A stretch of DNA of 64,000 nucleotides, from the NCBI GenBank assembly GCA_963402885.1, contig OY727096.1:6944001-7008000 (forward strand). Reading direction: 5' to 3'. Under the pieces are notes generated by a model. The model saw only the letters and a list, made by a program, of their open reading frames with translations, was not told the origin of the DNA and made no database searches. Positions within the stretch are counted from its first letter, which is position 1, and each line of letters begins with the position of its first letter. The translations under genes were made by a program, and so were the position numbers. Origin of the DNA: Antedon bifida (lineage: Eukaryota > Echinodermata > Crinoidea > Comatulida > Antedonidae). Positions 32,379 through 63,644 of this stretch are shown one piece after another.

Positions 32379-35300
32379 TTAGGCCTTATGGTTGATCGAT
32401 ATGTACTTGATGCCGTCGGCTTCATTATGGCACATCAAATCATCCCCACCATCTCCATTCACATCCGAAACTAACACATCATTGCCAGATGTACACCAGT
32501 TTTGTTTACGGGTCCAGCTTTTAGATGAAAACGAACCGTTGTACAGAGAGAATGCTATCCAGTAAGGACCATTTGTGTCGCTGCACATGATGTCGTCGCG
32601 GTTATCTTTATTGAAATCTCCAATGCTGAGCTTAGAGTTCGAATGCTTGCACCAGCCCATACTTCTGCTCCATGTGGCAGAGGTGAATCCACCAGTCGCT
32701 GTGGCTACTGCTACATATATGTAGCCAGATGAGTAGTCGTGGCAGAGCATATCAACCCTTCGGTCTCCGTTGAAATCTCCAGTATACACTCTTTGATATG
32801 TACCTCTGCACCAACTCATACTTCGTGTAAAGCGATATGTTGTAGAGGTAGAAAAATAACCAGTGTATAATGCATAATATATTGCAATGTAACCCGAACT
32901 TTGTGTGTGGCAAAGAATATCATCCCGACCGTCTGCATTGAAGTCTCCAATATATACTTTATCAGTGGTGGCCTTGCACCAATTGGGACTATACGACCAC
33001 GGGTTAGCAGTGAATACACCCCCAGGTTGCGCCAACACAACCCAAATCTGACCATACTGAGGACGATGACACAGCATATCGGATCGACCATCGCCGTTGA
33101 AATCACCAATGTATAGATCATATCCACTTACGTAGCAAAAATTCATCTCTCTTCTCCACGACCTATCACCATTAAAAGAGCCGTCACAACTAAAAGTAAA
33201 AACAAACAATACTGTATAAATAAAAAATCAACAACAATAAAACATAAAATGATCGCTTCAGCAAACTGTTATTGTTATTACTGATAGTATCTATTTTATC
33301 TGTACCTAGGCCCTATATTTACATACATTATGGCTGTATATTTTAATGTACTGTACTACATTGCTAGTTTTTACATAACTGATTGTTGACTGTAGACGTT
33401 TCGTTGTTACTCTCCTGAATCTATTGTGTATTTCGTATCATACTAGAAGACCTATCCTTCGCCATCGAAGTGTACTACATTGTTGTATAACACTGATTCG
33501 ACTCTAAATGAGTGGTGCCTTATTTCTCGAGCACCACTGGGTTTAAACCCTGTGCTCATTCGACGGTACTTACCTTGCATAGTATATCTTTTTCGAGCCT
33601 GTCTTTGAATTGTGAAACAGAAGATCTTCATTACCGTCACCGTCGAAATCTCCTGTAAACGGTTTGTGTTCAGGTCCTACGCAGAATCCCATCTCCAGTG
33701 TGAAAGTTGTACCAAGGAATATATCACTGGCAGAAACTGTGAATTATACGATTACATTCAGGTACATTCATTTTGAATTATACTTTATCTTTAACTTACT
33801 TGTCCATGCTCCACTATTATTTCAGAGTCGAGTTTGAATTGTAATTTTGATTTTTTTTTAAATGAGACTGTACACTATTGTTATATTGTAATATCATGCG
33901 TTGTCCGCACCACATGTGTGCAATTCAGTTCAGTTAGGCTGTGTGCAATTCAGTTCAGTTAGGCTGTGTGCAATTCAGTCCAGTTAGGCTGTGTGCAATT
34001 CACAGTTAGGCTGTGTGCAATTCAGTTCAGTTAGGCTGTGTGCAATTCACAGTTAGGCTGTGTGCAATTCAGTTCAGTTAGGCTGTGTGCAATTCAGTTC
34101 AGTTAGGCTGTGTGTAATTCAGTTCAGTTAGGCTGTGTGCAATTCAGTTCAGTTAGGCTGTGTGCAATTCAGTTCAGTTAGGCTGCAAGCCACATGTTAG
34201 TCCCCGCATTAACATTTATTTTATAAATGTATTACTTGTTGCTCAACCATTAAATCATATTCATAATATACTGTATAATACGGACAATTTAAATTTAAAG
34301 ACCTACCTGATTTTGTAGAAATACTTGTTTCGGTTAGTTCTTCTATTTCAGTTTCTGAAATAATGAAATGTTGATATAGTAAGTTCTGATAATATATAAA
34401 TGATAAGACATTCAGGATGTAAATCCCCTATATTTGGGATTTAGAGGGCTAACCCTGGTGTACCATACAAATTGTTGTTTTTTTTTTAAATCTGTTTTTT
34501 GTTTGTTTTCTTTGTATGGTAACGAAAAAAAAATAAAATGAAAATTCCATTTTTTTTGCAAGATTTTACTATATGTTGGTTACCACTGGACGCAACACAA
34601 GACGTCGTATGTTCAGCACAAGTAACTTGACCAATCACATGACTGTAGTTTATATGATGATCTGTCGCTTGTGATTGGTCAAATATCTTGCGTTGCGTCC
34701 TACAGCAGTGGAAGCCAATCTAATCGAAAGCAAAGAGTTCACGTTTTAAGTGAGTATGTGAGTTTTTAATAAACTCGCATTACTGTGACCCCTCCCATTC
34801 TCAAACTATATTTGCATTTAATTTTGGTAGCAAACAAATTTAATTAATGAGGGAGAGGAGAGGAGTAATTTTACATTTATTGTTTACCTTCTTTGGTAGA
34901 AGTACTTTTTTTGGCCGGTTCTTCTTTTTCATTCGCTAAAAAAACATTTAAATAACAGAATATTAATTAAACAATTTTTGAACTTGCTCTTTACATACAG
35001 GTGGCAGTTGTTGATGTTTTATTGATTTCCACAAATAATACATGTGAGTTTTTAATAAACTCGCATTACTGTGACCCCCCTCCCATTCTCAAACTATAAT
35101 TATTTGCATTTAATTTTGGTAGCAAACAAACTTAATTAATGATGGGAGAGGAGAGGAGTAATTTTACATTTATTGTTTACCTTCTTTGGTAGAAGTACTT
35201 TTTTTGGCCGGTTCTTCTTTTTCATTCGCTAAAAAAAACATTTAAATAACAGAATATTAATTAAACAATCTTTGAACTTGCTCTTTACATACAGGTGGTG

Positions 35301-37640
35301 GTTGTTGATGTTTTATTGATTTCCAAAAAGAATACATAATATATTTCTTTATAAATAATTAATTAAGTCTAAATGTGGATGGTGGTAAAAAATAATAAAA
35401 ATAGACTTTATGGAGAGACCACCATTTACAAAATAGAAAAACATTAGGCCTACATTGAGGTTATAGTACAATAATTAATTGGAAAAATAAATAAAACATA
35501 TAATTTCTATTATTTACCTGCTTTTGTTGATATACTTTTTTCGGCTTTTTCTTCTGGTTGACTTTCTGAAACAATTGAAAAAATGACAAATTTATAACAA
35601 ATAAAACCAATATTTATGCCTATGACTCCAGTATTTTTTAAAAATATGATTGATATTAGGCATACAGTCTCCAAATCTTCTCTTATTTTTTTTTTATAGT
35701 GCTTGGAGATATTTTGGTAACTAATTGTTGGTAAGGAATAATGAATAGTCCTAATAATGCACAAGGCATTGTTTACAAAAAAAAAATAAAAATAAATCAT
35801 CAACTTATTATTAGTACCTGTTTTTACTGAAATGCTTTTTTCTGCTGTTTTTTCTTGATCACTTTCTGAAATAAATAAATAAGCATTATGATTGACACAT
35901 TTGTCCATATATATTTCAAATAGGACATTTAACTAAAATGATTACGGTATCGAATAAAGCTAATTGTTATTACCGTGAAAACAATGACTGTATGAACGTA
36001 GGAGGTCTACATGAATAGTATTTCCCGATTGGCATTGAACAGAACTCACTTTTGAATACTTTAAACATTGTATATCGGATTGAACTGGTTCTACTTTGGC
36101 AGAGTTTACGTGGGGATTTTTAAAATTCAAAAATTCAAAAATTCAAAAATTCAAAATTCAAAAATCTTTTATTGTCCAATTACATACAAAATACATACAT
36201 GCCATTGGACATGTGTCGTTTGATACACTACATAACAATTAAAAATGATATAGAGTTATACTGTACATCATTCACAAAACTTGTTACAACAAAATAAATA
36301 CAAATTTAAATACAAAAAAGCACACGTAACTTAAACTAAAACTTAATGCATTGTGTTGAGGAAAGACTAGGCGTTTTGCAAATTATTGAAGTAAGTATGT
36401 ACTATATTAAAATATCATAAAAAAAATACTCTATTTAAAAATGTTAAATATCGCAAAATCAGTTCACTCATAATTGTATAAGAACTTGGTGCAACATTTC
36501 CTTTATCCGGTTTTATGTACAACGTTTTCACCATAATTATATGAATAAATCTGTTTCCACTAAGCCATATTTATTGGAATCCCGATTGATAAACAAATAC
36601 TTTTAGAAAATAAGTATAGTAACAAGTGTACATTCTTAAATGTCTTATGTGTTTACCTGTTTTGGTGGCAGCACTTTTTTCGGCAGGGTGCTTTGCCACA
36701 CTCGCTGAAATAAGTAATAAAGTGTATTATTATTATTAACAAAACATAATAGAAATTGAATTTACAAAAAAGATATTAAAGATGAATTGTACCGTAAAAA
36801 CATGGAAAATGAAGATTAATAAAACATATTTTGAATATGCTATTTTGCAGTTTTAATAAAGTTAATCAGAAAGATTAAGATTTTCAATAGAAAAAAAAAT
36901 TATGAAAGCACTTGGGAAAAGATATCAGGGAAAACTATACTCGGGCTCGCTACTTGATATTTCGGTCCATGTTAAAACAGTACAGAGGGCGTGCCATTTG
37001 ATATGCTATTTTAATATCTCATATAATGGAAGATACTGTTGTAAGTCATATTTTAATATAATAAGCTTTTGTGACACGTCCAATATATCGATTTTCCTGA
37101 AAATGAATAGGCATGTTATGTAAGTATATACCAACCAACCCACACACATTCAGTACGATAAATTGAACAGCGTGAACGCCATCGTGTTAACAAACAAAGC
37201 AATTACTATTTATTATTTAGCAAAATTCAAAAAAAATAGTAATGGTTTCACTTGTAACAACACAAAATAAACGATTAAATTCAACCAAAACCTTTTGACT
37301 TCCAGTCAATTTGACTATTTTTGGCCGGCTTTAAATTACGGAATGAATAAATAACGGAAATCAATTTAGAGCAAAAAGTATCAAGACATGAAATGAGATT
37401 ATCCTGCAGATGTGTTGGCGCAGAACCAACAACTAAAACTAGAGTGGATATGTTGTAGATAATACACTGTTCAATTCTAAGCCCGTGAAGTCAAATACGC
37501 CCTTGTAATATTATATTACTAGGTATTACTATTATATTACTACTGGTATTATGGAATGCGGTTAAATTCTTACCTGCTCCAGATGTATGCAGAGTGTATA
37601 TCAGACAGAGAAGCAACACTAACTTTGTTGAGAGATTCAT
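32379..37640 (-). CDS. Cluster gene A: secreted VCBS/FG-GAP-like repeat protein
   Basis: Nine exons predict 442 residues: 37640-37574, 36704-36657, 35865-35818, 35565-35518, 35228-35181, 34935-34888, 34354-34307, 33736-33574 and 33189-32379 (TAA). All phases agree. Exon 1 is a signal peptide (MNLSTKLVLLLCLIYTLHTS). Six 48-nt phase 1-1 exons each add a 16-residue charged unit resembling ESQPEEKAEKSISTKAG. The last two exons encode six Asp-rich repeats of about 50 residues of the pattern WC...IGDFNGDGRSDMLCH, as in VCBS/FG-GAP propellers. The Asp loop suggests calcium binding and the paired Cys a disulfide per blade; the first blade has Phe for the second Cys. There is no lectin domain. Probably extracellular; partner unknown. 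The homology of the repeat class is firm, the function is not. Confidence 0.88.
33905..34190. repeat. 25-bp minisatellite in gene A intron
   Basis: About eleven units of GTGCAATTCAGTTCAGTTAG plus GCTGT, two of them shortened. A single related unit occurs at about 2340-2365 in the tail of a dispersed repeat, which suggests that the array grew from an inserted copy of that repeat. Confidence 0.9.
34576..34718. mobile_element. 143-bp foldback MITE in gene A intron
   Basis: TTGGTTACCACTGGACGCAA at the left is mirrored by TTGCGTCCTACAGCAGTGGAAGCCAA at the right (stated in parts: TTGCGTCC and CAGTGGAAGCCAA). The inner arms GACCAATCAC and GTGATTGGTC also pair. Almost the whole element folds on itself. 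It is non-coding. Confidence 0.7.
34755..35341. repeat. Tandem duplication of about 290 bp containing a mini-exon
   Basis: Two consecutive near-identical blocks (about 34755-35041 and 35042-35341) share the flanking text TGTGAGTTTTTAATAAACTC, CTCCCATTCTCAAACTATA and GGAGAGGAGTAATTTTAC. Each contains one 48-nt exon of gene A (34935-34888 and 35228-35181), and the two exons are identical in sequence. The few differences in intron sequence show that the event is recent. Confidence 0.9.
36113..36350 (-). mobile_element. LINE 3' tail with (ATTCAAAA)n
   Basis: On the minus strand the sequence runs ATTGGACAATAAAAGATTTTTG into repeated TTGAATTTT units, the style of CR1/L2-type 3' ends. No coding part is recognised. 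It lies in a gene A intron. Confidence 0.45.
36776..37330. mobile_element. Decayed member of the TTAA/AGATGTATTGTCCC family, interrupted
   Basis: The left end ATTAAAGATGAATTGTACCG with AACATGGAAAATGAAGATTA matches the family seen intact at 41105-41445. The right part (TAGTAATGGTTTCACTTGTAAC and TTGACTTCCAGTCAATTTGAC, each as a separate block) also matches. Between about 36905 and 37200 lies foreign sequence containing GATATTTCGGTCCATGTTAA. A reverse-oriented relative of that foreign sequence is at 50040-50180. Confidence 0.45.
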
Positions 37641-37705
37641 CTTGTAGAGCAATGTTACAGCTTCTGAACCAGATCCAGAAATGACATTGTATCGTTTTGG
37701 AACCG

Positions 37706-37715
37706 TTTATATATG
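37706..37715 (-). promoter_or_regulatory. TATA box of gene A
   Basis: CATATATAAA on the minus strand, about 65 bases before the ATG. It is aligned in sequence and distance with the boxes of genes B, C and D. Confidence 0.7.
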
Positions 37716-40700: not shown

Positions 40701-41100
40701 TATTGTTTTGTTTCTGAAATATCTTCTTGAGTATTAATTACACTATATAGGCCTATATAATTATTAAGACAAAATTTATAAACCTATATTTTCAATTTAA
40801 ATTTAAGGTTGTGCTATCAAAAATAATGATGTAACGTGCCCTTTTCGCTAGGTTTAAGAATTAACCGTTATTTTAAATTTAAGGTCTATTATTGAATATT
40901 TAATGAATTATTGAACATAATTTAGTTAAGTAAAATGCAAAATATTAAGCTGGTGATGTACTGCAAGTTGGAGTTTAGGTTCCACACATTTCTTAATGAT
41001 AGGCGATCTCCTTTGTACTACTTGCAACTCTGCAATTCCATGTTAGTTACGTTACGTCATTAGTGGTTCGCTGGAAGAAATATAATACAAAACACCCCAT
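37716..41100. other. Intergenic spacer between genes A and B
   Basis: AT-rich with no supported gene. ACACGTCATTTATGATCACAC near 37768 recurs upstream of gene D near 63812 and may be a distal promoter element or repeat. Near 38360-38410 GCGCTTT repeats look like a SINE tail. Between about 40140 and 40330 a rearranged piece of the TTAA element family is visible (GGCTGCAAGCCAATGG, TCTATGGAAGTGATTAAC). Confidence 0.5.
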
Positions 41101-41104
41101 TTAA

Positions 41105-41445
41105 AGATGTATTGTCCCCCAAAAACATGAAAAATGAAGATTAACTTTGACTTTGAATAGGTTATTTTGTAGTTTTAATAAAGTGAATCACTTCCATAGA
41201 AAAAAAAATGGAATAAATAATGTTTTCACTTATAAAATAACACGATAAATGGTTAAATTCAACCAAAAATCCATTGGCTGGCAGCCAATTTGACATTTTT
41301 TTGCTTTAAATTCCATTTTTTCAGGTAAATAAATTGTTTTTCGATCCAATTTTTAGTCGAAGTCAATAACTATTATGTGACATTAAAATGGCATATTCAA
41401 CAAAAAAAATAAAAAAAAAATATTTTTCAGGGGGACAATACATCT
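41105..41445. mobile_element. TTAA-flanked MITE, AGATGTATTGTCCC family, 341 bp
   Basis: The ends AGATGTATTGTCCCCC and GGGGGACAATACATCT are inverted repeats, with TTAA directly outside both (41101-41104 and 41446-41449). TTAA duplications and short ends suit piggyBac- or Kolobok-type transposases; none is encoded here. Confidence 0.85.
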
Positions 41446-42568
41446 TTAATTATTTATTTAACTTTGTTTTACGAAGGTAGCTCTAACAGCTGTACTAAAG
41501 CAGTACAGCTGTCTTGAGTATAATCACATACTTTTAAGCCTGTTTTCATAAAAAATGTTTGCCAAAATTCTGTTTAGTATTCTTTTGAAGACGGCGTCGT
41601 TAGTTAAATAGAAATTATTATCAGATAGTTAAACGGCGTCGTCTTCCATTCCGTTCAGCGGAACAAGTGTGAATGTAGCTTAAATCTGACCCTAACCATC
41701 TTTCATTAGTTTAAACATTATAATTATTACTAATCAGTGCTGTCATAGGAACTGCTGTACTTACGTTTTTCACACACGTAACCCATCCTTGAAGTACAGT
41801 CATCATCATTCCATTCGCCTTTTTTATACATGTGGACACACTCTTCCCTATCTTTCCAATCGTTTGGCTCACCCTTTGCATAGTCTGAAAAATGAGAACG
41901 CAATAGTTTGTTTCAGAAAAAATAAGAATGCTTATATTGTTGTAAATCCTCTATGCCATTTAATGTAAATCCTAATCTGATTCCATATTCATTCCGGCTA
42001 CATAACTACATGCTTGTCGTGGTCTTCTGGGAACATCTAGTCAAATTATTATAATTTTCATACACATTAATGAATTGTCCATGCTGATGCACTGTATGTA
42101 ATTTATTGTTTATAATTATTTTCAATATAATGATTAATATATTAATAACTAAAATCAAGTATTGTACTCATGTAAAGTTAACTTAGCTGATGGGATCAAC
42201 TAGAAATAAATAGTATGTTTTACTTACTTGAATAATATGAGTCTTCCGATCTCACCCAGGCTAGTCTATGACTACTGCCCCTTCTTAAACCAATCCACAC
42301 GTATTTGTTAGACAGTTTTTCGACAAAATTATTTTCATTCGAACTCCTTATCACAACAAGATCAGCGCCATAACCTTTACACTCTAGCCGATTCCCAATC
42401 CATTTTTGTCTAAAAGTATTTGTAACAGCTTGTATCATGTGTTAACCAGTTACTTGGACAACCTTTACAATTAATTAAAATATCGTATTTTGTTACTTTT
42501 TATTCCACATTTTTCGCCCGAACGCGACATTTATTTCTGGGCCGATCATAAACAGTTCATTATATTAA

Positions 42569-43831: not shown

Positions 43832-44308
43832 ACCCATGAGAGTTGTTTAGTGTATGAATTATTTTATACCTGGTTGTTTTGCATTAATTTTTTTGTTCAG
43901 TGTCTGTAGCAAATGTTCTGAAATCAATAATAAATATTCATAATCAATCAAACGGCCAATAGTTTACAAGGATATTGAATTATACATTTTTATTTTTTCT
44001 TGAAAATGTCAGAGATTCAAAATATTGTTACATTAGGAAAAAAAAGTGGTTTTATTAGCCTTTTTGTAGAGGGTATTTTCTCTATACATAAAAACAGCTC
44101 GTAAAGTATGTCAATATAAATAAAGAGGTATTACCCTTACAGATTTTTTTTTGCTGACTGTTTTATCACACTTGCTGCAATTAATAACATAATATTATTA
44201 TTCTAGTAAAATATATACAATGATATTAACACTGTTTAGACCTAAAACGCATTGCTAGTTCACCTACCAACTTCTTCAGCGCCAGAGAAGTTTTGCTATT
44301 TGTGAAAG

Positions 44309-45440: not shown

Positions 45441-45544
45441 TAAATGAACTTAAAGGAGTTCGTCTATAGTTACATTGAACATGTTGCAATACCAGTATAA
45501 CATTAGTATTTGTAGAACATATCCTTAACCCTCCATCCCTCTAC

Positions 45545-45790
45545 TTTTGGACCTGAGTGTATGTTAGGTAAAAAAGCAAGTAGAGTAACATGGTAACAAC
45601 TTGCCAGAGATATGCAGAGTTTAAAGACAGAGAGAAGCATAGTAGTATCAAATTAACAAATTACCAGAGGTACTGTATGCAGAGCTATATTATATGTAAA
45701 ATGTTAAAGCCGATAAGCAAATAGAAGAGAGATACCCGATATGCAGAGTGAATTTTAGTCAAATAAGAAAGTAACATTGTAACAACTCAC
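45545..45790 (-). repeat. Degenerate tandem copies of the signal-exon end, gene B
   Basis: Directly downstream (gene sense) of gene B exon 1, three or four diverged copies of a unit with AGTAACATGGTAACAACTTGCC, ATATGCAGAG and GAGAGAAGCA appear. They are the counterpart of the long array in gene C intron 1. Confidence 0.55.
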
Positions 45791-45919
45791 CAGAAGTATG
45801 CAGAGTGTATGCTAAGCAGAGAAGAACCACTATCTTCATTGAGAGAGTCATCTTGCAGAACTATGTTGTAGAAGTTGCTGACCCCAAAGAAGAACTGCTA
45901 TTGATACCTTTCTGCATCC

Positions 45920-45929
45920 CTTATATATG
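45920..45929 (-). promoter_or_regulatory. TATA box of gene B
   Basis: CATATATAAG, about 69 bases before the ATG. The surrounding sequence (GGATGCAGAAAGG, TTGTAGAAGTTGC) resembles the gene C promoter. Confidence 0.65.
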
Positions 45930-49340: not shown

Positions 49341-49344
49341 TTTC

Positions 49345-49742
49345 TTCTATCATGTTTAGATATATGGACTTTAGTCCATAGGATGGATTATGAACCAGGA
49401 AGTCAGGCCCACCATCTCCATCCACATCAGCAATTATAGCAATTGGTCACCGGAGCTAAAGGCGGAAGTCAACCCTCGAAGAAAAAGAACCATTGTATGA
49501 GGAAATGGCTATCCATTTCGGACCCATGTTGTCACTGCACAGCATATCTGCATCGTTGTCTTTATTGAAAACGGCAATAGTAAGCTTATAATTTGAAGTG
49601 TTACACCAGCTATGGATTTTGCTCCATGACTCCGAAGAGAATGTTCCACTGCTCGAGCGAATGCCATCCAGTCGTTACCAGAATTTAAGTTATGACAGAG
49701 CATATCAGCCCTTCGGTATCAGTTGAAATCTCCAGTGAAAAG
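49345..49742 (-). pseudogene. Truncated copy of the gene C VCBS exon
   Basis: The sequence follows the 3' end of gene C (50738-51140) closely, including the stretches for SYGLKS, GDGGPDFL and DNMGPKWIA, but has internal losses (the segment between SSGDQ and the next blade is shortened), frame breaks, and stops where the MITE fragment 49743-50012 begins. It is a partial tandem duplicate of gene C lying just downstream of it. Confidence 0.85.
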
Positions 49743-50012
49743 TGTATTTTTGCTGAAAAGTTTCGATTCTTCCAGTTATTTTGGCCTTCACAATCGATTG
49801 AAAGTAGGTGAATCACAGAATAAAAACTAAAATATCATGTTGGGATTTATAGCGGGCCGCTAAAATTATTAGAATCGACTTATTTTTCACATTTTTAACC
49901 GTTCAAAGACGAAAACAGTTATTTCAATAGGACCATATAGTATTTATTTTTACAATAAATGTAGTTTGTGACCTTAAATTAGATCTAAAAAATGTAGGGA
50001 ATTGGACTTTAA
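49743..50012. mobile_element. Truncated MITE, inverted relative of the 53796-54423 element
   Basis: Read in reverse, it matches the first 250 or so bases of the element in gene C (TAGATCTAATTTAAG, AACGGTTAAAAATGTGAAAA, GGCCCGCTATAAA). Its outer end GTAGGGAATTGGACT is followed by TTAA. The other end is cut where the VCBS pseudogene fragment begins. Confidence 0.7.
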
Positions 50013-50737: not shown

Positions 50738-53700
50738 TTATTCTATTCTGTTCAGAAATACGGACTTAAGACCATAAGATGGATTATGTACCAGAAAGTC
50801 AGGCCCACCATCTCCATTCACATCAGCAATTAACAATTGGTCACCGGAGCTAAAGGCGGGTGTTGCCTGTGGAAAGTCAACCTTCGATGAAAAAGCACCA
50901 TTGTATGAGGATAACGCTATCCATTTCGGACCCATGTTGTCACTGCACAACATATCTGCATCGTTGTCTTTATTGAAATCTGCGATAGTAAGCTTAGAAT
51001 TTGGAGTATTACACCAGCTATGGCCATTGCTCCATGACTGCGAAGAGAATGTTCCACTGCTCGAAGCGAATGCCATCCAGTCGTTACCAGAACTGAAGTC
51101 ATGACAGAGCATATCAGCCCTTCGGTCTCCGTTGAAATCTCCAGTGATAATTTTATCATGCGAATGCTTGCACCAGTTCATATTTCGTTCCCAACTAGTT
51201 GAAGGAAAGCTACCGTCTTTGTTGGCATATGATATCCATTTGCTACCAGAATTAGTGTAATGGCACAACATATCATCTCGGCCGTCCGCGTTGAAGTCAT
51301 TAACAAAAAGGTGGGCGTCGGAACCAGTGCAATAATTCCTACTAGAGGAAGAAAAAGTTGTTCCATAGAACTTTCCTCCAGGTTGAGCAATTGAAACCCA
51401 CTTTCCACCAGACTGAGTGTCATGACACAGCATATCTGACCTGCCATCTCCGTTGAAATCACCAATTAAAAGTTGATCCTGTGAGTGCTTACACCAATAT
51501 TGGTTAAATTGCCATGAATTATCTGAACTAAAATAGGCACTATGACTGAAAAAGACAAACAAACAAATTATTATAAAACTCAACCAAAATATAATTATAT
51601 CATGAGAAATAAAACTGTTGTCAAACGATGTATACGTGCATTATACTCCTTAAATATGTCACGTCCAAACACAGCATCAATCGTGGTGTTTTTTTTAAAT
51701 ACTGTTTTGTGTTAGTGTCACAAATAATTATGGATTTGTTTGTAAAACTACTATTGGACCAATCATATATTTTCTATGTTATCGGCCAAAATTACCTTCC
51801 ATAATATATTGTTTTCCCGCCATTGCGAATATTATGACAGAGTAGATCTTCTTTGTTATCACCATTAAAATCTCCGATATACGGCGTATTGTCTCCTGTG
51901 CAAAAGCCCCTCTGTTGTTGATGAACTGGACTAACAATAATAGAGATATCACGTGATTCTATAACAAAAATAACGGATATAATTTATTCATATCGCCTTA
52001 TTTTATACATTACAGTATAAAAATCTTTAGCGTTTATTTTTACAATATGGTTTTAGAAAATGTTATTCCACAGATTTTGCTTTAATTGGTATTTATGACA
52101 ACTTTTATAAAACCATTACCCAAAATTGTTTAAAAGTAGGTATTTTTCTTAATTTAAGCAAGGCATTTGACACCGTCAACCATACCATTCATATAAACTT
52201 GAACGATATGGTGTTAGAGGCCTTGCTCTTCCAGGGTATTGTTATAGCGACTTTTTAACACTCTCGGCGTGGTACGGCGGAGCAGCTGCACTAGTCCCTT
52301 GATTTTACGCACGCGCACTAGAGATCAAACTGATACGCCCTCATCTTTATCACGAAGCGGGATCTCCGAAGAGATACTTTTTTTTTTTAATGGTGGCCTC
52401 TGCTTAAAGATGTATTGTCCCTTTGACTAATTCCAAAAAAATAAAAAATAACAGATTTCGAAAAAAGGTGGGTCATTTTGAAGTATCTTAATAGTTATTA
52501 ACTATCACCAAAAATTTGTCGAAAAAAAAATCATTTAACTGAAATACAGACGTTTTTTTCTTAAAAAAATAACTTTGACTTCCAGTCGATCAAAACATAT
52601 CCTATAATGAAACGCGCTTGTTTGGCTACTCTGTATGCATAATCATAAAACTTCCTCACGATATGTGTGAAAATACCTTCTCAACCGTGACAAGTTGTAA
52701 ACAATCCTAATTAGCATATGCATAATGCGTACTCGTGGTTTGAAATCTTTGTTTACTTTCGCTCGCGACGATTTTCTAGACGAAATGTAATCAAACTAAT
52801 TTACCTGTTAATTACGTAAACGAATTTTCGACTTAAAGTGAATAACTTTAATATTACTTTGATATGGCTAATTTAAATTTAGAATATTTTGATCTTCATT
52901 TTTTGTGTTTCAAGGGACAATACATCTTTAAAGTCTATTTCTAGACTTATTGTGACTACCATCTACATTCATAAATATTTACAGATTTATTACGAAAATA
53001 TATGGCACAATGTGCACGGGAATTGAAAGTCCCATTACTTGTGGAGGTATACATGTTTTACCAGTTATACCTCTTTTACACCAAGAGCAAAACTCTGGAG
53101 ACACTCCGCAGTAGTTGACGCCACAGTGGTTTGGTGTGAAAAGTAAAATTAAACAACTCCGGAGTTCAAAACAGCGGGGTTAAACAGCAGCTGAACGTTC
53201 TCCGAAAGACGAACTGCGGGGACACACCGGTGTTTTGATGTGAAAGGTACAAACATCAAACTTTTTAGGTCAAAAGGTCATCCTCAAACGATCACTCATT
53301 GCTCTATTTTTATTTAAAATACTTTAAATATTTGTGCAAAATATATAGCGGGTCTAAAAAGTAATAAGTAGTATCAATAAAACATTATACGACTTTGAGA
53401 CTTTCGAAAATAGTTATTAAATTAAAAATATTATCAATTACAATGTTTCTAATGTAAACAAACAAAATAGAGGGCGACATTTACAATTTTATTTTATAAA
53501 CCCCGGTGTGAAAGGGGTTTCTTGACGTTTTGAATGGTCATAAACCCCGGGGTGTCTCCGGAGTTTTGGTGTGAAAGGGGTACTAGTGTACATTACCTGT
53601 GTTGGTCAGTCGTTGTTTCTCATCGATCAATGTTCGTTCGTCATTATTTTCTGAAATCATAACACGTTATGTTTTTATTAATAATGAAAAAAAATATATA

Positions 53701-56095
53701 ATTATATATAAGAAACATTTTGGTGCCAAGTATCTTAGACCAAGGATCACTGTGATACAATGATATATGCCTTTAAGGTCAAAGTTCAATTTTAAAGCCC
53801 CCTTCCCTACGTTTTTTAGATCTAATTTAAGATCACAAACTATATTTAATGTAAAAATAATACTATATGGTCCTATTGCAATAACTTTTTTCGTCTTCAA
53901 ACGGTTAAAAATGTGAAAAATAAGTCGATTCTAATAATTATAGCGGCCCGCTATAAATCTCAAAATGCATTGCGCGCGGATTGATATTTTTGTTTTTCAC
54001 CTGTAATTCGCCCACTTTTCGATCGATCGTGAGGCCAAAACAAATGGAAGACTCCTAACTTTTCAGCGAAAATACCGGGTTTTCCCCAATTTGTATCAAC
54101 GGAGTCTGGCAAAAATAGAAAGACAATTAATGCAGCAACTATACAACGTCAGGCTAGGTATATAGCTAGCGTACGATGTTCGTACGTTACCGATGTTTAC
54201 CAGCTAGGCCTACAAAACTAAGCCTAGCTAGGCTCTAGGCCTAAGACCGTCCACGAGAGGTCGCTCGCCGCGAGCTACTTAGGTAGTGCATTGTTTCTCA
54301 CTTTTTATCATAATTTACCATAAAACGTACATTTAAGATAAGGAATGACATGGTTTAATGTTTTTAAAGTGATATATATGTATTATTTTCCAAAAAACGT
54401 CCAAAATTGCAGGGAAGGGGTCTTTAACCACTTTCCCCATACCGGTATATAAACAAGCAATGTGTTAATAATTTTGTCACAAATGACCGACAGTAGTAAA
54501 ATATCTAATACTTTGAGAATCATCAAAAAGTTGAACACATTTCGTTACAACTTTAACTCTAACAACACAGAGATTTGGCCTATATCTTATTACCTGGTTG
54601 TCGAGCATTACTTTTTTTGGTCAGTGTATGTAGCAAACTTTCTGAAATCAATAATAAATATATTCATAAATAGTCAAACGTCCAATAGCTTGAATATTGA
54701 ATTTTATTTCTTTTAAAATGATGTCATGATTCTAAAAATTTTTCGAATGGACTGAAAATTTAATTGAATGTTTTGTTATTTCATGTGGCAAAGCAATCTT
54801 AATACACCACTTCGCAAATCCATAAACGTAGTTAAATAAAATAAATAATAACGATAAATAATTCAGAGAAAATGTAATATTGGGTACAATTTATCCTGCG
54901 TTTGGCGTTTCTGTACATTATAACAGCTTGTAAATAATAATAATAGTAATGTTTACCTTTTTTTGACAGATTTTTTTTAGCTTGCTGTTTTATCACATTT
55001 GCTGAAATAAAAAAAAAATATTCTAATGAAATATCTAGAATTATGAAATTAAATAAAGATTGTTGATGAACTTCAGGCGAGTCGGACGAGTTGACCTATG
55101 AACACCTTCCAGTAAGAGTTGTGGTATCCGTTAATAGGGCTAAATGCAATACTCTACAAAAAGCAAAGCAAGACAATCTAACAGGACACTGAGCTTACCT
55201 AGATGAAAAGTTTCCTCTGTGGTTGCAATACGATCAGTCCCCATCCCCTAAAGGCTTGGCTGATATTTGGTTGTTCAACATTTGCTTCCTCGAGTATTTA
55301 GTTAGCAGAGACTGGAGAATATTTACATTTTGATACTACTATTTTACCTCAAAATTAATTAAATAAAGTGAATATGTTTTGGTATAGTACCAGAAGTTTG
55401 CAGAGTGTATGTTAACACAGAGAAGCAAGTATAGTAACCCAGCAACAACAAATCACATGAGGTACCAGAGTGTATGTTAGCAGAGATGTGAGTATAGTAA
55501 CCCAGCAACAACTCACCTGAGGTACCAGAGTGTATGTTAACAGAGAAGTGAGTATAGTAACCCAGCAACAACTCACCTGAGGTACCAGAGTGTATGTTAG
55601 CAGAGAAGTGAGTAGAGTAACCCAGCAACAACTCACCTGAAGTACCAGTGTGTATGTTAGCAGAGAGTGAGTAGAGTAAAATAGTAACAACTTACCAGAA
55701 GTATGCAGAGTGTATGTTAGCAGAGAAGTGAGTATAGTAACCCAGCAACAACTCACCTGAGGTACCAGTGTGTATGTTAGCAGAGAAGTGAGTAGAGTAA
55801 CATAGTAACAACTTACCATGCAGAGTGTATGTTAGCAGAGAAGTGAGTATAGTAACTCACCTAAGGTACCAGTGTGTATGTTAGCAGAGAAGTTAGTAGA
55901 GTAACATATTAACAACTTACCAGAAGTATGCAGAGTTTATGTTAGCAGAGAAGTGAGTATAGTAACCCAGCAACAACTCACCTGAGGTACCAGTGTGTAT
56001 GTTAGCAGAGTAGAGTGACATATTAACAACTTACCAGAAGTATGCAAAGTGTATGTTAGACAGAGAAGCATCACTATCTTTATTGAGAGAGTCAT
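50738..56095 (-). CDS. Cluster gene C: secreted VCBS/FG-GAP-like repeat protein
   Basis: Six exons predict 392 residues: 56095-56035 (signal peptide, MTLSIKIVMLLCLTYTLHTS), 55001-54957 (45 nt), 54641-54594 (48 nt), 53650-53597 (54 nt), 51958-51796 (163 nt) and 51545-50738. Phases agree throughout; the three mini-exons are phase 1-1. Their products differ from those of gene A (ESLLHTLTKKSNARQPG; ANVIKQQAKKNLSKKG) but match the relics in gene B, so B and C are the closest pair. There are six Asp-rich blades (IGDFNGDGRSDMLCH and relatives). The last blade has lost both Cys (AFSSGDQL, DFLVHN), which fits a within-blade disulfide lost as a pair. There is no lectin domain. Intron 1 contains an array derived from exon 1, and other introns hold four small elements. 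Confidence 0.87.
52040..52225 (+). pseudogene. LINE reverse-transcriptase fragment in gene C intron
   Basis: QYGFRKCYSTDFALI followed by NLSKAFDTVNHTI are RT motifs of the same class as in the LINE at 3906-7016, but diverged. Only about 60 residues survive, in the opposite sense to gene C. Confidence 0.75.
52408..52927. mobile_element. TTAA-flanked MITE, AGATGTATTGTCCC family, 520 bp
   Basis: AGATGTATTGTCCC at left and GGGACAATACATCT at right, TTAA outside both (52404-52407 and 52928-52931). It is the longest family member in the window and lies in a gene C intron. Confidence 0.85.
53068..53582. mobile_element. 515-bp element with GTGTCTCCGGAG-type inverted ends
   Basis: TACCTCTTTTACACCAAGAG plus CAAAACTCTGGAGACACTCCG (left, in parts) is mirrored by CGGGGTGTCTCCGGAG plus TTTTGGTGTGAAAGGGGTA (right). 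Inner copies of CCGGTGTGAAAGG occur too. No clear target duplication. The end motif reappears in the minisatellite downstream of TBCEL. It lies in a gene C intron. Confidence 0.75.
53796..54423. mobile_element. 628-bp TTAA-flanked element AGCCCCCTTCCCT
   Basis: The ends AGCCCCCTTCCCTACGTTTT and GCAGGGAAGGGGTCT are inverted repeats, with TTAA outside both (53792-53795 and 54424-54427). The inner sequence has GC-rich AGGCCTA-type stretches and no coding frame. A second, truncated and inverted copy is at 49743-50012. TTAA targets again suit piggyBac/Kolobok-type mobilisation. Confidence 0.85.
55388..56032 (-). repeat. Eleven-unit 60-bp array derived from the signal-peptide exon and its splice donor
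   Basis: Each unit, read on the gene strand, has CTCTGCTAACATACAC followed by a divergent stretch and a donor-like CAGGTGAGTTGTTGCTGGGT or CTGGTAAGTTGTTAC. The true exon 1 immediately beyond the array (56095-56035) has CTCTGTCTAACATACAC and ends CTTCTGGTAAGTTG. The array therefore arose by repeated duplication of the 3' end of exon 1 with its splice site. No unit keeps the ATG. Units alternate between two sequence types. Confidence 0.85.
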
Positions 56096-56162
56096 CTTGC
56101 AGAACAATGTTGTAGTTGCAGAATCCAAGAGAACTGATTAATAATATTACCTTTTTACATCA

Positions 56163-56172
56163 CTTATATATG
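56163..56172 (-). promoter_or_regulatory. TATA box of gene C
   Basis: CATATATAAG, about 68 bases before the ATG; same motif and spacing as in genes A, B and D. Confidence 0.7.
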
Positions 56173-59100: not shown

Positions 59101-59440
59101 TGTTGCTGAATGCTAATTTTAATGAAACTGGTTAAGCATGGAATTAATATATAAATTATACTTAAGCAACATTAGTATTTTATAATTATATTCAGTAATT
59201 GTGTTCTGGAATCGTAAATTTGTATATAGAAATTACACATTCCTTTAATATAATGATTAAGTAAGATTCATAAAATTTAAATTTGAAATTACACCCAAAA
59301 TGAATATTACGTTAAACTATTGAAATACTTATAATGTGTTAACTTGTTATGCTTTAGTATACTTTGATTGCTTGTAAGCTTACTGTGTAGTAGCATGAAT
59401 TGTATTTAGGTAGGTCCTAATCAAGTACATCATAATATGA
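56173..59440. other. Spacer between genes C and D
   Basis: No supported gene. A short repeat (GTGAATGACCCCAGT) occurs twice near 56856 and 56917. A block at 57366-57400 (TAGAGGGCGCTCTATAAGCA) resembles 42900-42925 in gene B. Several blocks are homologous to the spacer upstream of gene B. TATAATG-rich AT sequence precedes the gene D stop. Confidence 0.5.
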
Positions 59441-59445
59441 AATGA

Positions 59446-62400
59446 TTATAACCTTTTGTTCAAAGATATGTATCTAACGCCATAGGATGAACTTTCACAC
59501 AGCAAATCGTCGCCACCATCTCCATTCACATCGGCAATTAACAGCTTGTTACTGCTGGACGTACACCAGGACGTCTTACGCCGCCACCCTATAGTTGTAA
59601 ATAACCCGTTGGGTTCAGAAAAGGCAATCCACAACGGACCAGACGTATCGCTGCACATCAGATCGGCTCGTCTATCATTATTGAAGTACCCGATGCTAAG
59701 CTTATTATTGGTTGATTTGCACCACGAATCAGTATGCACATGCTTTTTTGCTGACGTAGTAAACTTGCCGGTCGCCGATGCTAATATGACCTCAAGGTGC
59801 CCATTTGCCAAGTGACAGAGTAAATCAGCCTTCCTATCTCCGTTGAAATCGCCTGTAAACAGTTTGTCAGAACCTGTGCACCAATTCATTTTGAGTTGCC
59901 AACCTACGTTAGAACTGGTGCCGCCATATATAATCTGCGTGTATTTATTGGTGCTACTACTGTGACATAACAAGTCATCTCGGCCGTCTCCGTTGAAGTC
60001 AGCGACAAATATTTGATCATATTTACACCAATAATAGTTATAATGCGCGGTAGTACCGGTGAATACACCTAGACGTTGGGCATAACTAATCCGTCTGTAA
60101 CCAGTTTTCCTATCTTGGCACATCATATCTGATCGACCATCACGATTGAAATCGCCTATAAAAAGTTGTTCTCCGCTGTGATGACACCAATCCATTCCAC
60201 TTGTCCACGACTGCTGGCTATTGAAAGTACCTTTGCAACTGAATTAAAAAAAGAAACAAAAAAACACACATAAATGAAACTCAAATCTTTCGTCTTTCAA
60301 AAACTACCTGCATCATTCATTTTCATTATTGTGCTTATAAGCGACCATCTCCCGAAAGCACATTTTTCCCGATAACGAGAGGTTAAAGTTTAAACTGCAT
60401 ATAAGCGCATCGCTTTCTTCAAATGTATTGGTCAGAGGTTGTTAGTTACCTTGCATAATATATTTGCTTTGAGCCCGTGACCGTATTGTGACACATCACA
60501 TCTCCGTTACCGTCACCGTTGAAATCGCCAGTGTATGCCTTCTGAGAAGATGATGAACACAGAGCTGACATGCTGGTTGTTGTACCCACGAATACATCAA
60601 CAGTGTGTTCTGCTGTATAAAACATGACATTGAACGTTAGATATGTATTATGTGTATTGGCATTTGACTCCTTTAGAATGCTTTGTAATTATTCCTCTTT
60701 GTATCAATAGGTACCACGCATCAAGATACACTATACATTAAACTTTTTATTTTACCTAAAATTATTTATGTATGCCAACTTACATAAATCGGAATCGATG
60801 TTTAGTTAAATTTTTTAGAATGTTTAAAAGGTTTACAAAAATCTGAACGTTCAATAGTACCGTTTATTATCACCATGAAATATCACTTTCCTGTTCAATA
60901 GAACTATATAATACTGAACGAAATAAGTAAAAATCAAACGGCCCACTCAGGTGCGTTATAAAACATGACATTTAGAAAAAAAATCGAACGACTGTACTTA
61001 CATAATTCACACACGTAGTGCAGGTTAGCACTACAGCTTAAGTCATTCCATGTGTACTGATAGCCTTTGTAAAGTTCAACACAGCCATTCCCTGCATTAC
61101 TTGGTTCACCTGCTCTGAACTCTGTAAAATATAATAAGAAAGGAAATAGTAATATGTTTTATTATATCTTGCCATTAGTATCTATTGGTACACTGTCATA
61201 TATATTTGTCTTTCGTTGGGACTACTTTTATTGTAATTCTTAATATTTTTTTATAAATAAATTATTATTTTATTATTAGTATACTTTAGTACATGATCAT
61301 TTTTCTTTTTCCAACTCTCGCTCTTTGTTAACAAACTTTACAATATACATAATGTTTATATAGGATTTAAACAAAATTAAGATTCCCTCAATTTAGAATT
61401 TTAAAGATAACGTAACAGATGTGAGTGATTTAAATTGTATACCGTAACAGTATATTTTTAAAACTGTCTTTCAAAAATGATTTTATACCGTAATTATATA
61501 TATTCGTTCTTACTTTTATAAGTTGAACTTTCGCCAGTTTCTACCCAAGAAAAGGATCCTTTCGATACTTCCTTCAAACCAATCCATGAGCTTTGTACAA
61601 TAAGGCTACCGATGAAGTTATTTTCATAGATATCCTTGATGACAGTAAGATCAGCTCCGTAACTCTTGCATCGAGATCTAGCTGTTTGCCAATTTGTCGG
61701 GCTATTAAAGTATCTGTAACAGCTTCCCTTATATGATGTCCAGTAACTTGGGCAGCCTTTAAAATGCAATACAAAGTAAGACACATATTTGACACAGTAG
61801 ATGTACTATTTAAACATGTTTTTGCCAAACAAAAATTATTGTATTGTGTCTTTTTATATGAAAATAAAAAGAAGTTGACAGGATAAGGTAAATTGTTTCT
61901 CATACAAAGAAAAACAGTGTAGCAACATTCGGTCGAAGATCAATCTTGACAAAAACGTTGCTCGGCAGTGTTCCTACATCGGTGTCGTAACGGATATAAG
62001 CGCTCACTGGCTATACTCAGGGGCTCCGGAGCTTATGGAGGCCCCTGAGCTAAAAAAGCTAAAAACACCCAGCTTCCAGAATTGGAGGGCCATTTAGGAT
62101 TCCTAAACCAGGGGCCTCGGGCGTTACGCCACTGCCTAAATAAAAATACATTTTTATTATTAGTTAAAACTTTTGCAGTAAACAGTAATTCAACATGGCT
62201 AGTTGCTATCTGTTTCTTTAAAACTGTAGTATATAAAATACATTACCTTTAGTTACGCTCTTTTGTACTAGTTGACTTTCCAAAGCTTCTGAAATGAATA
62301 AATATATTTTTTTCAGAATTTTGCTCTAAATTTTACGTGTTTTCCATAATTTCAAAACTGTAGTTCATGATATTTATCAATGATGGTATCAAATCTTTTA

Positions 62401-63584
62401 GCAAATCTTTGATCGTTTTCAGTTTTAGGTAAAAAGCATGACAAATGTGTCGGGAAGCATTGTCAGAGTAACTTTTGCACTAAGGTTAAATTTTTATTTT
62501 GTTTACCTGCTTTTTCTGCTAAACTGTCTTCGGTCTCTATTTCTTTAGTTCATGATATTTTTACTTTTCATGTTTAATAATTTGTGTTGTCCCCCCTCCC
62601 AAAAAAAACATAAAAAATAAAGATTAATAAAAAAAAGTTAGATAGGACATTTCGCAGTTTTAATAAAGTTAATCACTTCTGTACAAAAAAAAACAATAAA
62701 GTAATAATGTTTTTACGGTTACATTTAACCAAAACCCTTTAACTTCTAGTCACTTTGACTATTTTTGCTATTACAGTTTTTTAGGTAAATACTTTTTTTA
62801 TCCAATTTTTGATGAGTAACTATTAAAACTATTTTTTTTTTTCAGGGGCACAATATATCTTTAACAATAGGAAAAATTTAATTGAGACAAAAATATTGTC
62901 AAATTAAAATTACTATTAAATTCCCAAAAAATATAAATCAAATAAATAAAAAAATAAATTACGGACTTTACAGCAATTAGTATGAATTTGTCGTAGCCAA
63001 TCCAAGATGCAGAGTGAATTGAGTTCAAACCTGACCTCCGAAAAAATGCAATGACCGTATCAAATCGTTTAGCGCTAAGGTTAAATTCTTATTTTGTTTA
63101 CCTGCTTTTTCTGCTAAACTGTCTTCGGCCTCTATTTCTTTTACATCGTCCGAGTCTTCAGCATTTTCATCGACTGTTCGGATTTCATTATTTGTTTCTG
63201 CAACACCATTTTCGGTTAGAACGTCACTTGCTTCTTCGTCAACCTTTTCGATCGTTTGTTTTTTATCATGTGCTTTTTTAATACTTGCTGGAGGAATTTT
63301 ATATATTAAAGTCGTATTATGAAACAAACATACAATGTTATATGGTTTTATAATACAATGCTATAATAAGTAAGAAAATGCAATAACATAATGAGTCTCT
63401 TTTGCTAGAATTCCTAATGGAATGTTCAAGACTATACCCATCTAGTGTCAAGGCCTATAAAAGGAGACGTACCAAGCAAGTTCCAAGCAGGCCTAAAAGT
63501 AGACTATAAGCTAAAACACTTACCAGCTCTAGAGCCATGTAGAGTAAAGCAGAGAAGCAACACTAACACAGTTAAGCGATTCAT
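59446..63584 (-). CDS. Cluster gene D: secreted C-type lectin plus VCBS repeat protein (complete architecture)
   Basis: Exons: 63584-63524 (signal peptide, MNRLTVLVLLLCFTLHGSRA), 63287-63102 (186 nt, acidic linker), optionally 62542-62507, 62288-62247 (42 nt), 61756-61514 (243 nt) and 61121-61002 (120 nt) for the lectin domain, then 60612-60450 (163 nt) and 60238-59446 for the VCBS part. Phases agree; 535 residues without the optional 36-nt exon. The lectin has all six Cys of a long-form domain (GCPSYW, SCYRYF, RCK, GCVELY, SCSANL, YVCEL) plus WIGL and WND. EPS stands in place of EPN, so sugar choice is uncertain. Six Cys-paired Asp-rich blades follow (GDFNRDGRSDMMCQ and relatives). Probably a secreted calcium-dependent sugar-binding protein; an immune role is only inferred. 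Confidence 0.88.
61981..62134. repeat. Short GGCCCCTGAG repeat with GTAAC/GTTAC ends
   Basis: GGTGTCGTAAC at left and GTTACGCCACTG at right frame a GC-rich core (GAGGCCCCTGAGC, AGGGGCCTCGGGCG). It is related to the island at 2014-2375. It lies in a gene D intron between the lectin exon and the 42-nt exon. Confidence 0.5.
62465..62550 (-). repeat. Duplicate of the 3' end of gene D exon 2
   Basis: TAAGGTTAAATTTTTATTTTG and CTGCTTTTTCTGCTAAACTG (separate blocks, + strand) repeat the sequence at 63077-63140. The copy includes the donor and the codons for EIETEDSLAEKAG, preceded by a weak acceptor (AACTAAAG). It may be a used 36-nt exon (62542-62507) or a by-product of local duplication. Confidence 0.65.
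62578..62860. mobile_element. Decayed TTAA-flanked MITE, AGATGTATTGTCCC family
   Basis: The left end is degenerate (TTTGTGTTGTCCCCCC), the right end GGGGCACAATATATCT followed by TTAA. Inner blocks (AAAAATAAAGATTAATAAA, TAACTTCTAGTCACTTTGAC) match the other members. It lies in gene D intron 2. Confidence 0.6.
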
Positions 63585-63644
63585 TTTTTTGGAATAACGC
63601 AATGCTTCTTGAATCACAAGTAATGTTCCACTGGTTTAACATCA

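What the first reader, a model, noticed from the sequence alone, without database searches (positions are those of the whole stretch)
32379..63584. Tandem cluster of four secreted genes joining C-type lectin and Cys-paired VCBS repeats through arrays of tiny exons
Four same-strand paralogues share promoter, signal exon, phase 1-1 mini-exons and a fixed 163-nt plus roughly 800-nt VCBS exon pair, yet differ in lectin content and linker. I know of no described family with the order signal peptide, repeated charged mini-exons, C-type lectin, six disulfide-paired VCBS blades. The layout resembles diversified invertebrate recognition clusters; the immune role is inference.
Basis: partly seen in the sequence, partly recalled or inferred. 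Interest (0 to 1): 0.88.

Follow-up and report, generated by a model that had tools for sequence, protein, structure and literature searches.

The report
Secreted animal double-lectin gene cluster
An animal-like genome carries neighbouring copies of a gene for a probably secreted protein that joins a flexible charged stalk, in one intact copy a C-type lectin, and a six-repeat propeller-like head related to known sugar-binding propellers, so it is probably a sugar-recognising protein.

Summary
The anatomy is real, with one correction. Minus strand, 32379-63584: three intact genes (A, C, D) splice to stop-free ORFs with GT-AG sites and consistent phases: signal exon, phase 1-1 charged exons, [C-type lectin pair in D], 163-nt exon, 793-811-nt exon. 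So three, not four, share the VCBS pair, and one of them has a lectin domain.

The VCBS part is six FG-GAP repeats per gene; 16 of 18 have the canonical Cys pair. AlphaFold of gene A's last exon (five repeats) is confident (pLDDT 83.3, pTM 0.83). Its best solved matches are sugar-binding propellers: UmbA4 with teichuronic acid, then fungal PVL-type lectins. A profile of the three window genes alone agrees (UmbA4 5.5e-20), though single-sequence searches with A and C name CRTAC1 first.

Best reading: secreted one- or two-headed lectins on a flexible stalk, with exchangeable phase 1-1 modules. Glycan binding is inferred; immune use is open and gut use a real rival. The searches found no paper describing the fusion.

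The parts
63524..63584 (-). gene D signal-peptide exon (ends phase 1); TATATAA at 63646-63652
63102..63287 (-). gene D charged stalk exon, 186 nt, phase 1-1
62247..62288 (-). gene D stalk mini-exon, 42 nt, phase 1-1
61514..61756 (-). gene D C-type lectin exon 1, 243 nt, phase 1-1
61002..61121 (-). gene D C-type lectin exon 2, 120 nt, phase 1-1 (EPS, WND)
60450..60612 (-). gene D 163-nt exon, VCBS/FG-GAP repeat 1 (phase 1 to 2)
59446..60238 (-). gene D last exon, 793 nt, repeats 2-6 and stop
56035..56095 (-). gene C signal-peptide exon; TATATAA at 56164-56170
54957..55001 (-). gene C mini-exon, 45 nt, phase 1-1
54594..54641 (-). gene C mini-exon, 48 nt, phase 1-1
53597..53650 (-). gene C mini-exon, 54 nt, phase 1-1
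51796..51958 (-). gene C 163-nt exon, repeat 1
50738..51545 (-). gene C last exon, 808 nt, repeats 2-6 and stop (repeat 6 lacks both Cys)
49345..49754 (-). broken VCBS fragment (pseudogene), 86% identical to gene C last exon, with stops and a frame change
45791..45851 (-). pseudogene B signal exon, open; TATATAA at 45921-45927
44135..44174 (-). pseudogene B mini-exon with in-frame stop
43870..43917 (-). pseudogene B mini-exon, 48 nt, open
42228..42462 (-). pseudogene B C-type lectin exon 1, broken (235 nt, frame change and stop)
41765..41884 (-). pseudogene B C-type lectin exon 2, open (EPN, WND)
37574..37640 (-). gene A signal-peptide exon; TATATAA at 37707-37713
36657..36704 (-). gene A mini-exon 1, 48 nt, phase 1-1
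35818..35865 (-). gene A mini-exon 2, 48 nt
35518..35565 (-). gene A mini-exon 3, 48 nt
35181..35228 (-). gene A mini-exon 4, 48 nt (in 294-bp tandem duplication)
34888..34935 (-). gene A mini-exon 5, 48 nt (same peptide; second copy of the duplication)
34307..34354 (-). gene A mini-exon 6, 48 nt
33574..33736 (-). gene A 163-nt exon, repeat 1
32379..33189 (-). gene A last exon, 811 nt, repeats 2-6 and stop; structure predicted

Best explanation
A small tandem family of secreted lectins. A signal peptide sends the protein out of the cell (inferred from sequence and hydropathy). A charged, Cys-free, probably disordered stalk of 50-96 residues follows; its length is set by how many phase 1-1 exons a copy carries (shown in the DNA; transcripts not seen). 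The stalk leads to a head of six FG-GAP/VCBS repeats, predicted to be a beta-propeller with Ca2+-type loops and, in most blades, a disulfide staple (five repeats modelled; six-blade closure, Ca2+ and disulfides inferred). In gene D a C-type lectin domain, a two-exon phase 1-1 cassette, sits between stalk and propeller and makes the protein two-headed. The propeller probably binds glycans in clefts at its blades, as UmbA4 and PVL do, and the C-type lectin adds a second sugar site. The most likely use is binding foreign or microbial surface sugars in gut lumen or body fluid. Because every stalk and lectin boundary is phase 1, exons can be gained, lost or skipped without changing frame.
For: Stop-free splicing of A, C and D with consistent phases. 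Pfam FG-GAP_3 and Lectin_C. The N-terminal hydrophobic stretch is the strongest of each protein; stalks are 36-42% K/E/D/R with no Cys. Two loop Asp columns are invariant in 18 of 18 repeats; 16 of 18 have the canonical Cys pair, and C repeat 6 lacks both. AlphaFold of A's last exon: pLDDT 83.3, pTM 0.83. Foldseek ranks 1-8 of 484 are lectin entries: UmbA4 with teichuronic acid, PVL, Psathyrella asperospora lectin, Agrocybe lectin. A profile of the three window genes alone finds UmbA4 (9oee) at 5.5e-20, another 'Secreted esterase' (8w20) at 4.2e-11 and PVL at 2.8e-6, against CRTAC1 0.0024 and integrins from 0.019; with six bacterial relatives added, 8.8e-22, 2.9e-11 and 1e-8. Gene D's last exon alone finds 8w20 at 4.6e-8. 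UmbA4 has a six-bladed propeller that binds teichuronic acid at canonical blade sites, and mutations there reduce activity (passages of PMC13274773). The D lectin domain matches mannose-receptor-family and DC-SIGN CTLDs. The CTLD is in B and D but not found in A and C, while promoter/signal identity is highest for B-C (76%), so the cassette probably changed at least twice.
Against: No transcript, binding or expression data. Single-sequence PDB searches do not favour lectins for two of three genes: gene A's six repeats give CRTAC1 (2.4e-4), then integrin alpha-5 (0.075), and no lectin at E<=1; gene C's last exon gives only CRTAC1 (0.11). FG-GAP propellers are not always lectins: integrin alpha, CRTAC1, KICSTOR and Tc-toxin propellers also match by fold, and gene D passes Pfam's cut-off for TcdB_toxin_midN (26.0 against 24.8 bits). 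The column that I map to UmbA4 Trp668 (mapping from an hmmsearch alignment and a guessed numbering offset) is not a conserved aromatic here. Gene D has EPS where the canonical mannose-type motif is EPN (motif meaning recalled), and an odd Cys number. Only three intact copies. The complete spliced propeller was not modelled, and the AlphaFold alignment held only nine sequences, six of them bacterial.
Confidence: 0.6

Rival explanations
1. A gut-lumen digestive or barrier protein family: secreted by intestinal epithelium to bind food or commensal glycans rather than acting as an immune receptor.
For: In Apostichopus japonicus an 'FG-GAP repeat family protein' is in three of the paper's top-ten lists of lowered transcripts (log2 -19.7, -19.7 and -6.1), beside amylase and lipase (passages of PMC3735544). 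Of six bacterial Cys-paired relatives scanned, four carry peptidase domains (astacin twice, M19, trypsin).
Against: It is not known whether that sea cucumber protein has Cys-paired repeats, a stalk or a lectin, or that the window species is an echinoderm. No peptidase domain is found in A, C or D at E<=0.01. A lectin role in the gut is compatible with immunity too.
Confidence: 0.3
2. Extracellular-matrix or cell-cell adhesion proteins: the propeller binds host proteins or glycans, as the integrin alpha and CRTAC1 propellers do, and the C-type lectin binds matrix glycans.
For: CRTAC1 is the best single-sequence PDB match of gene A (2.4e-4) and the only one of gene C (0.11); CRTAC1 and integrin alpha are among fold matches. 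C-type lectins also occur in matrix proteoglycans such as aggrecan (a match).
Against: Profiles score lectin propellers far better than CRTAC1 or integrins, also with the window genes alone (9oee 5.5e-20, PVL 2.8e-6, CRTAC1 0.0024). No RGD motif in A, C or D. Copy turnover with pseudogenes and stalk changes is unusual for matrix scaffolds (general knowledge).
Confidence: 0.2
3. A diversified immune receptor cluster of the FREP or Sp185/333 kind (recalled), in which copies and mini-exon splicing create a large repertoire.
For: Tandem copies, pseudogenes, gain or loss of the lectin cassette, a 294-bp tandem duplication carrying a mini-exon, and phase 1-1 exons that permit frame-safe skipping.
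Against: Three intact copies in 64 kb; no allelic, expression or splicing data; VCBS dN/dS is below 0.4 with saturated dS, which shows constraint and not diversification.
Confidence: 0.25

Closest known systems
Streptomyces UmbA4 lectin subunit (umbrella toxin particle; PDB 9oee)
   Same: Closest solved match by profile (5.5e-20 with window genes alone; 8.8e-22) and first in Foldseek; a six-bladed propeller that binds a surface polysaccharide, in a protein with a second lectin domain (passages).
   Different: [quoted passage not shown] the window genes have a signal exon, a charged stalk and an optional C-type lectin. The Cys pairs are absent from the UmbA4 stretches aligned.
Psathyrella velutina lectin (PVL) and Agrocybe aegerita lectin 2
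   Same: FG-GAP-like propeller lectins, among Foldseek ranks 2-8 for gene A; PVL profile E 2.8e-6 to 1e-8.
   Different: Fungal; seven blades (recalled); no charged stalk or C-type lectin (recalled); 16-19% identity.
Bacterial Cys-paired FG-GAP modules (loci L001-L006, L089)
   Same: Same WC...DFNGDGxxDLLCH repeat; 26-40% identity to gene A's last exon for L001-L006; L002 has six repeats, as the window genes do.
   Different: Pfam names astacin/matrixin, M19 or trypsin domains in 4 of 6 scanned and no C-type lectin in any; seem rare (2 of 282 sampled genomes of the Nannocystis phylum at E<=1e-50, seed included, mostly 9 candidates scored per genome).
C-type lectin domains of the mannose receptor family, DC-SIGN and CEL-I
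   Same: Gene D's domain aligns over residues 2-120 of 121 and has six Cys.
   Different: These have no FG-GAP propeller (recalled); EPS in place of EPN or QPD (motif meaning recalled).
CRTAC1 and integrin alpha propellers
   Same: FG-GAP propellers of animals; CRTAC1 is the best single-sequence match of gene A.
   Different: Much weaker than lectin propellers in profile searches; no RGD, no EGF or integrin legs here.
Invertebrate diversified recognition families (FREPs, Sp185/333; recalled)
   Same: Tandem secreted paralogues with variable module content.
   Different: Different domains (recalled); no repertoire, somatic or splicing diversity shown here.

Membership tests
FG-GAP/VCBS repeat beta-propeller | repeats with DxNxDGxxD loops scoring above Pfam cut-offs | tested here: met
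   FG-GAP_3 E 1.3e-31, 1.5e-29 and 2.4e-25 for A, C and D, above cut-off; six repeats in each of three genes
FG-GAP/VCBS repeat beta-propeller | closed propeller fold | tested here: inconclusive
   Confident model of five of six repeats (pLDDT 83.3, pTM 0.83) matching propellers; the spliced six-repeat protein was not modelled, but a six-repeat bacterial relative was (pLDDT 80.2, pTM 0.81)
Propeller lectin (UmbA4/PVL kind) | closest relatives by sequence profile and fold are lectins | tested here: met
   Profiles and Foldseek. Against: single-sequence searches with A and C put CRTAC1 first; D puts 8w20 first
Propeller lectin (UmbA4/PVL kind) | conserved sugar-contact residues | tested here: inconclusive
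   The column mapped to UmbA4 Trp668 is Asp in 20 of 24 bacterial repeats and variable in the 18 window repeats; the mapping is inferred, and pocket positions also diverge between UmbA4 blades
Propeller lectin (UmbA4/PVL kind) | demonstrated glycan binding | not testable with these tools
   needs binding assays
C-type lectin domain | Lectin_C profile, disulfide cysteines, WND | tested here: met
   gene D: E 3e-17 over profile 2-106 of 107, six Cys, WND present
C-type lectin domain | canonical EPN or QPD sugar motif (recalled; many C-type lectin domains lack it) | tested here: not met
   gene D has EPS; pseudogene B's open second exon has EPN
CRTAC1/integrin alpha adhesion propeller | best match in profile searches | tested here: not met
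   CRTAC1 0.0024 and integrins from 0.019 against 5.5e-20 for UmbA4 with the window-only profile; yet CRTAC1 leads single-sequence searches of A and C
Diversified immune recognition cluster (FREP or Sp185/333 kind) | large, polymorphic or splice-diversified repertoire induced by challenge | not testable with these tools
   no whole genome held, no transcripts; three intact copies in the window
Secreted protein | signal peptide, no further membrane anchor | tested here: inconclusive
   hydropathy of 15-residue stretches only: N-terminal maximum 1.95-2.05, from residue 31 on at most 1.51 (A), 0.66 (C), 1.33 (D); no dedicated predictor available

The most novel reading that the evidence does not exclude
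An animal lineage has a tandem family of two-headed recognition proteins in which a disulfide-stapled, six-bladed propeller lectin, of a type otherwise seen here only in a few bacteria (several with peptidase domains) and kin to umbrella-toxin and fungal lectins, was coupled to C-type lectin and stalk cassettes through uniformly phase 1-1 exons, so that head content and reach can be reshuffled by exon gain, loss or skipping to recognise microbes.
Probability: 0.3. Interest if true: 0.75.

Novelty: new variant of a known kind. Interest (0 to 1): 0.55.

Why it matters
It would add an animal member with paired cysteines to the propeller lectins that bacteria and fungi use to read surface sugars, and a fusion with a C-type lectin that the searches did not show in print. 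The uniform phase 1-1 stalk and lectin exons make a clear test case for how recognition proteins change reach and head content by exon gain and loss. The model gives direct tests: glycan arrays on each head, and isoform sequencing.

Tried and rejected
Rejected: four VCBS genes (B has none). Considered and left open: B's promoter and signal exon serving as an alternative start for gene A, about 9 kb from A's first mini-exon; phases allow it, but there are no data. Considered: an extra 30-nt exon at 62507-62536 in D, within a 95% copy of the preceding exon's end; not used because its acceptor is purine-rich. Integrin/CRTAC1-like adhesion ranked lower because lectin propellers score better in profile and fold searches, although CRTAC1 leads single-sequence searches of A and C. 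To see whether the bacterial rows drove the profile result I repeated it with the three window genes alone; the order held. Positive selection cannot be judged: dS is saturated, and the YN00 method failed with an error for 3 of 3 gene pairs.

Led nowhere: own-genome search (none held); phage collection, no match at E<=1e-4; plasmids gave 45 bacterial records, all under 60% identity; viral contigs gave 7 weak relatives; ARAGORN found no tRNA, Rfam one weak tRNA-like match. Species identification is weak: TAGGCCTA is counted 30 times over both strands (15 palindromic sites) against 0.9 expected on the same count, which I recall as an echinoderm habit; no call confirms it. VIA-align was not available. 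Origin or transfer of the Cys-paired module could not be tested without other animal sequences.
Full report
Observation. The window looks eukaryotic (26-35% GC per 4 kb, split genes; no whole genome held). On the minus strand three genes can be spliced completely. Gene A (37640 to 32379): signal exon, six 48-nt exons, 163-nt exon, 811-nt exon; 442 aa. Gene C (56095 to 50738): signal exon, exons of 45, 48 and 54 nt, 163 nt, 808 nt; 392 aa. Gene D (63584 to 59446): signal exon, exons of 186 and 42 nt, C-type lectin exons of 243 and 120 nt, 163 nt, 793 nt; 535 aa. Every intron is GT-AG, every boundary up to the 163-nt exon is phase 1, and each ORF has only its terminal stop. All four signal exons, pseudogene B's included, have TATATAA 68-76 bases before the ATG. 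No transcript was available; the exons are predictions.

Correction. Gene B (45851 to 41765) keeps a promoter and an open signal exon but has a stop in its first mini-exon, a lectin exon of 235 nt with a frame change and in-frame stop, and no VCBS match before gene A's promoter. A VCBS fragment at 49345-49754, 86% identical to gene C's last exon, is interrupted.

More than chance. A filter for charged phase 1-1 exons, set after I had seen the exons, gave 22 candidates on minus 32001-64000, against 1, 2 and 3 on the other three half-strands. It recovers 9 of 11 modelled stalk exons; other candidates are alternative ends or lie outside the models. FG-GAP_3 E-values are 2.4e-25 or better in A, C and D; Lectin_C in D is 3e-17. 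VCBS dN/dS (NG86) is 0.35 (A-C), 0.27 (A-D) and 0.23 (C-D) with saturated dS, which fits constrained coding.

The propeller. Each gene has six repeats of about 50 residues. In the alignment of 42 repeats (18 window, 24 bacterial) two loop Asp columns are invariant in the window repeats; 17 of 18 have the first Cys, 16 of 18 the second, 16 of 18 both. Gene C repeat 6 lacks both. Gene A repeat 1 lacks the second but has an extra Cys174, which gives 12 after the signal peptide. Gene D has 13 in its propeller, an odd number. Joint loss in C supports pairing; no disulfide has been shown, and the odd Cys of D is unexplained. AlphaFold of A's last exon, with nine aligned sequences of which six are bacterial, gave pLDDT 83.3 and pTM 0.83; the six-repeat bacterial L002 gave 80.2 and 0.81. 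Foldseek against PDB puts UmbA4 with teichuronic acid first and fungal GlcNAc lectins at ranks 2-8 for both models; TcB toxin, KICSTOR, CRTAC1 and integrin propellers follow.

Sequence searches of solved structures do not all agree. A profile of the three window genes gives 9oee (UmbA4) 5.5e-20, 8w20 ('Secreted esterase', which I recall as another UmbA) 4.2e-11, PVL 2.8e-6, CRTAC1 0.0024, integrins from 0.019. With six bacterial relatives added: 8.8e-22, 2.9e-11, 1e-8, CRTAC1 3.9e-7. L002 alone finds 9oee only (9.1e-10). Gene D's last exon alone finds 8w20 at 4.6e-8. But gene A's six repeats alone find CRTAC1 (2.4e-4), integrins and no lectin at E<=1, and gene C's last exon alone only CRTAC1 (0.11). 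Gene D also passes Pfam's cut-off for TcdB_toxin_midN, an FG-GAP-type region (26.0 against 24.8 bits). I weigh profile and fold above single sequences. Passages of PMC13274773 state that UmbA4 has a six-bladed propeller, that teichuronic acid sits at two canonical propeller sites, that mutations of contact residues impair activity, and that pocket positions diverge between blades.

Relatives. The scan of prokaryote genomes used two peptide patterns, one of which includes a Cys; of 333 pattern matches 181 were relatives and the best 80 were kept. Of the 87 loci then in hand (80 plus 7 viral), six have three or more Cys-paired repeats by regular expression and two more have one. Of six relatives scanned (L001-L004, L006, L089), Pfam names peptidase domains in four: astacin in L001 and astacin/matrixin in L002, M19 in L003, trypsin in L004; none in L006 or L089, although the first half of L089 reads trypsin-like to me (recall). 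In the phylum of the Nannocystis genome 2 of 282 sampled genomes match at E<=1e-50, the seed included, mostly with 9 candidates scored per genome. So the module looks patchy in bacteria; the direction of any transfer is unknown.

Lectin cassette and stalk. Gene D's lectin matches CTLDs over residues 2-120 of 121, with six Cys and WND, and EPS where EPN is canonical (recalled). B has the same two-exon cassette, broken (71% nucleotide identity over 154 columns). tblastn at E<=1 finds no lectin in A or C. Promoter plus signal exon identity is 76% for B-C, 65% for A with B or C, and 56-57% for D with the others, so the lectin's presence in B and D does not follow that kinship: probably two or more gains or losses. 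No tree was built. Mini-exons also multiply: in A a 294-bp tandem duplication carries two exons with the same peptide. Stalks are 36-42% charged with no Cys.

Mechanism. Shown: gene anatomy, repeat pattern, model and matches. Inferred: secretion, disulfides, Ca2+, six-blade closure, glycan binding, two-headed binding in D, and immune or gut use. I put the reading as a whole at 0.6; the window-only profile and the single-sequence results pull in opposite directions and leave it there. Gut use is supported by passages of PMC3735544, where an FG-GAP repeat family protein is in three top-ten lists of lowered transcripts with amylase and lipase; identity with this family was not tested.

Literature. 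Searches for C-type lectin with FG-GAP (6 papers) and with VCBS (4 papers), gave no listing that describes this fusion; one search held 385 papers, of which I saw 20 listings, none with FG-GAP. I read passages of PMC3735544, PMC8151451, PMC11788884, PMC13274773, PMC7390872 and PMC10387209: the last two use the terms for integrins, for a TIP protein and for C-type lectins separately. The rest I saw only as listings. Subscription papers and preprints were not covered.

Verdict. A real gene family with a corrected count; a new combination of known modules; probable secreted lectins; immune role open.

Noticed in passing
55401-56068 (gene C intron 1); weaker at 45551-45824 (pseudogene B): Minisatellite of about 60 bp that resembles the 3' half of the signal exon plus its donor site: ten GTAAGT/GTGAGT donors including the real one, six of them written as YAG|GTGAGT, as in recursive splice sites.
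   Followed up: partly
34756-35337: Two 294-bp tandem copies, 95% alike, each with a 48-nt mini-exon encoding the same peptide: a fresh mini-exon duplication.
   Followed up: partly
33915-34185: A 25-bp minisatellite in gene A's intron between the last mini-exon and the 163-nt exon, the place where gene D has its lectin exons.
   Followed up: no
62473-62546 and 63068-63141: 95% copy of the end of gene D's 186-nt stalk exon with its donor but no good acceptor.
   Followed up: partly
63636-63777 and 63806-63964: Gene D's promoter region is imperfectly duplicated just upstream (70%), possibly a remnant of a further copy.
   Followed up: no
gene D, residue 273 (junction of 60450-60612 and 59446-60238): An extra Cys makes the propeller's Cys number odd (13) in D; A has one at the same junction, C does not. 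A free Cys could link two molecules.
   Followed up: no
3147-7016 (+): Non-LTR retrotransposon: L1-RBD-like ORF (below Pfam cut-off) and an open 1041-aa endonuclease/reverse transcriptase ORF.
   Followed up: partly
16210-16785: Eight 72-bp tandem copies, 98% alike, nearly all in one open plus-strand frame.
   Followed up: no
13461-14228 (+): Exon-like ORF with a weak LRR match below cut-off, reminiscent of TBCEL (recall).
   Followed up: no
whole window: TAGGCCTA is counted 30 times over both strands (15 palindromic sites) against 0.9 expected on the same count; I recall this as typical of echinoderms.
   Followed up: partly
L001-L006, L089: Bacterial Cys-paired FG-GAP modules, several on astacin-, M19- or trypsin-domain proteins, some in Nannocystis or Myxococcales: possibly an uncharacterised accessory domain.
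   Followed up: partly
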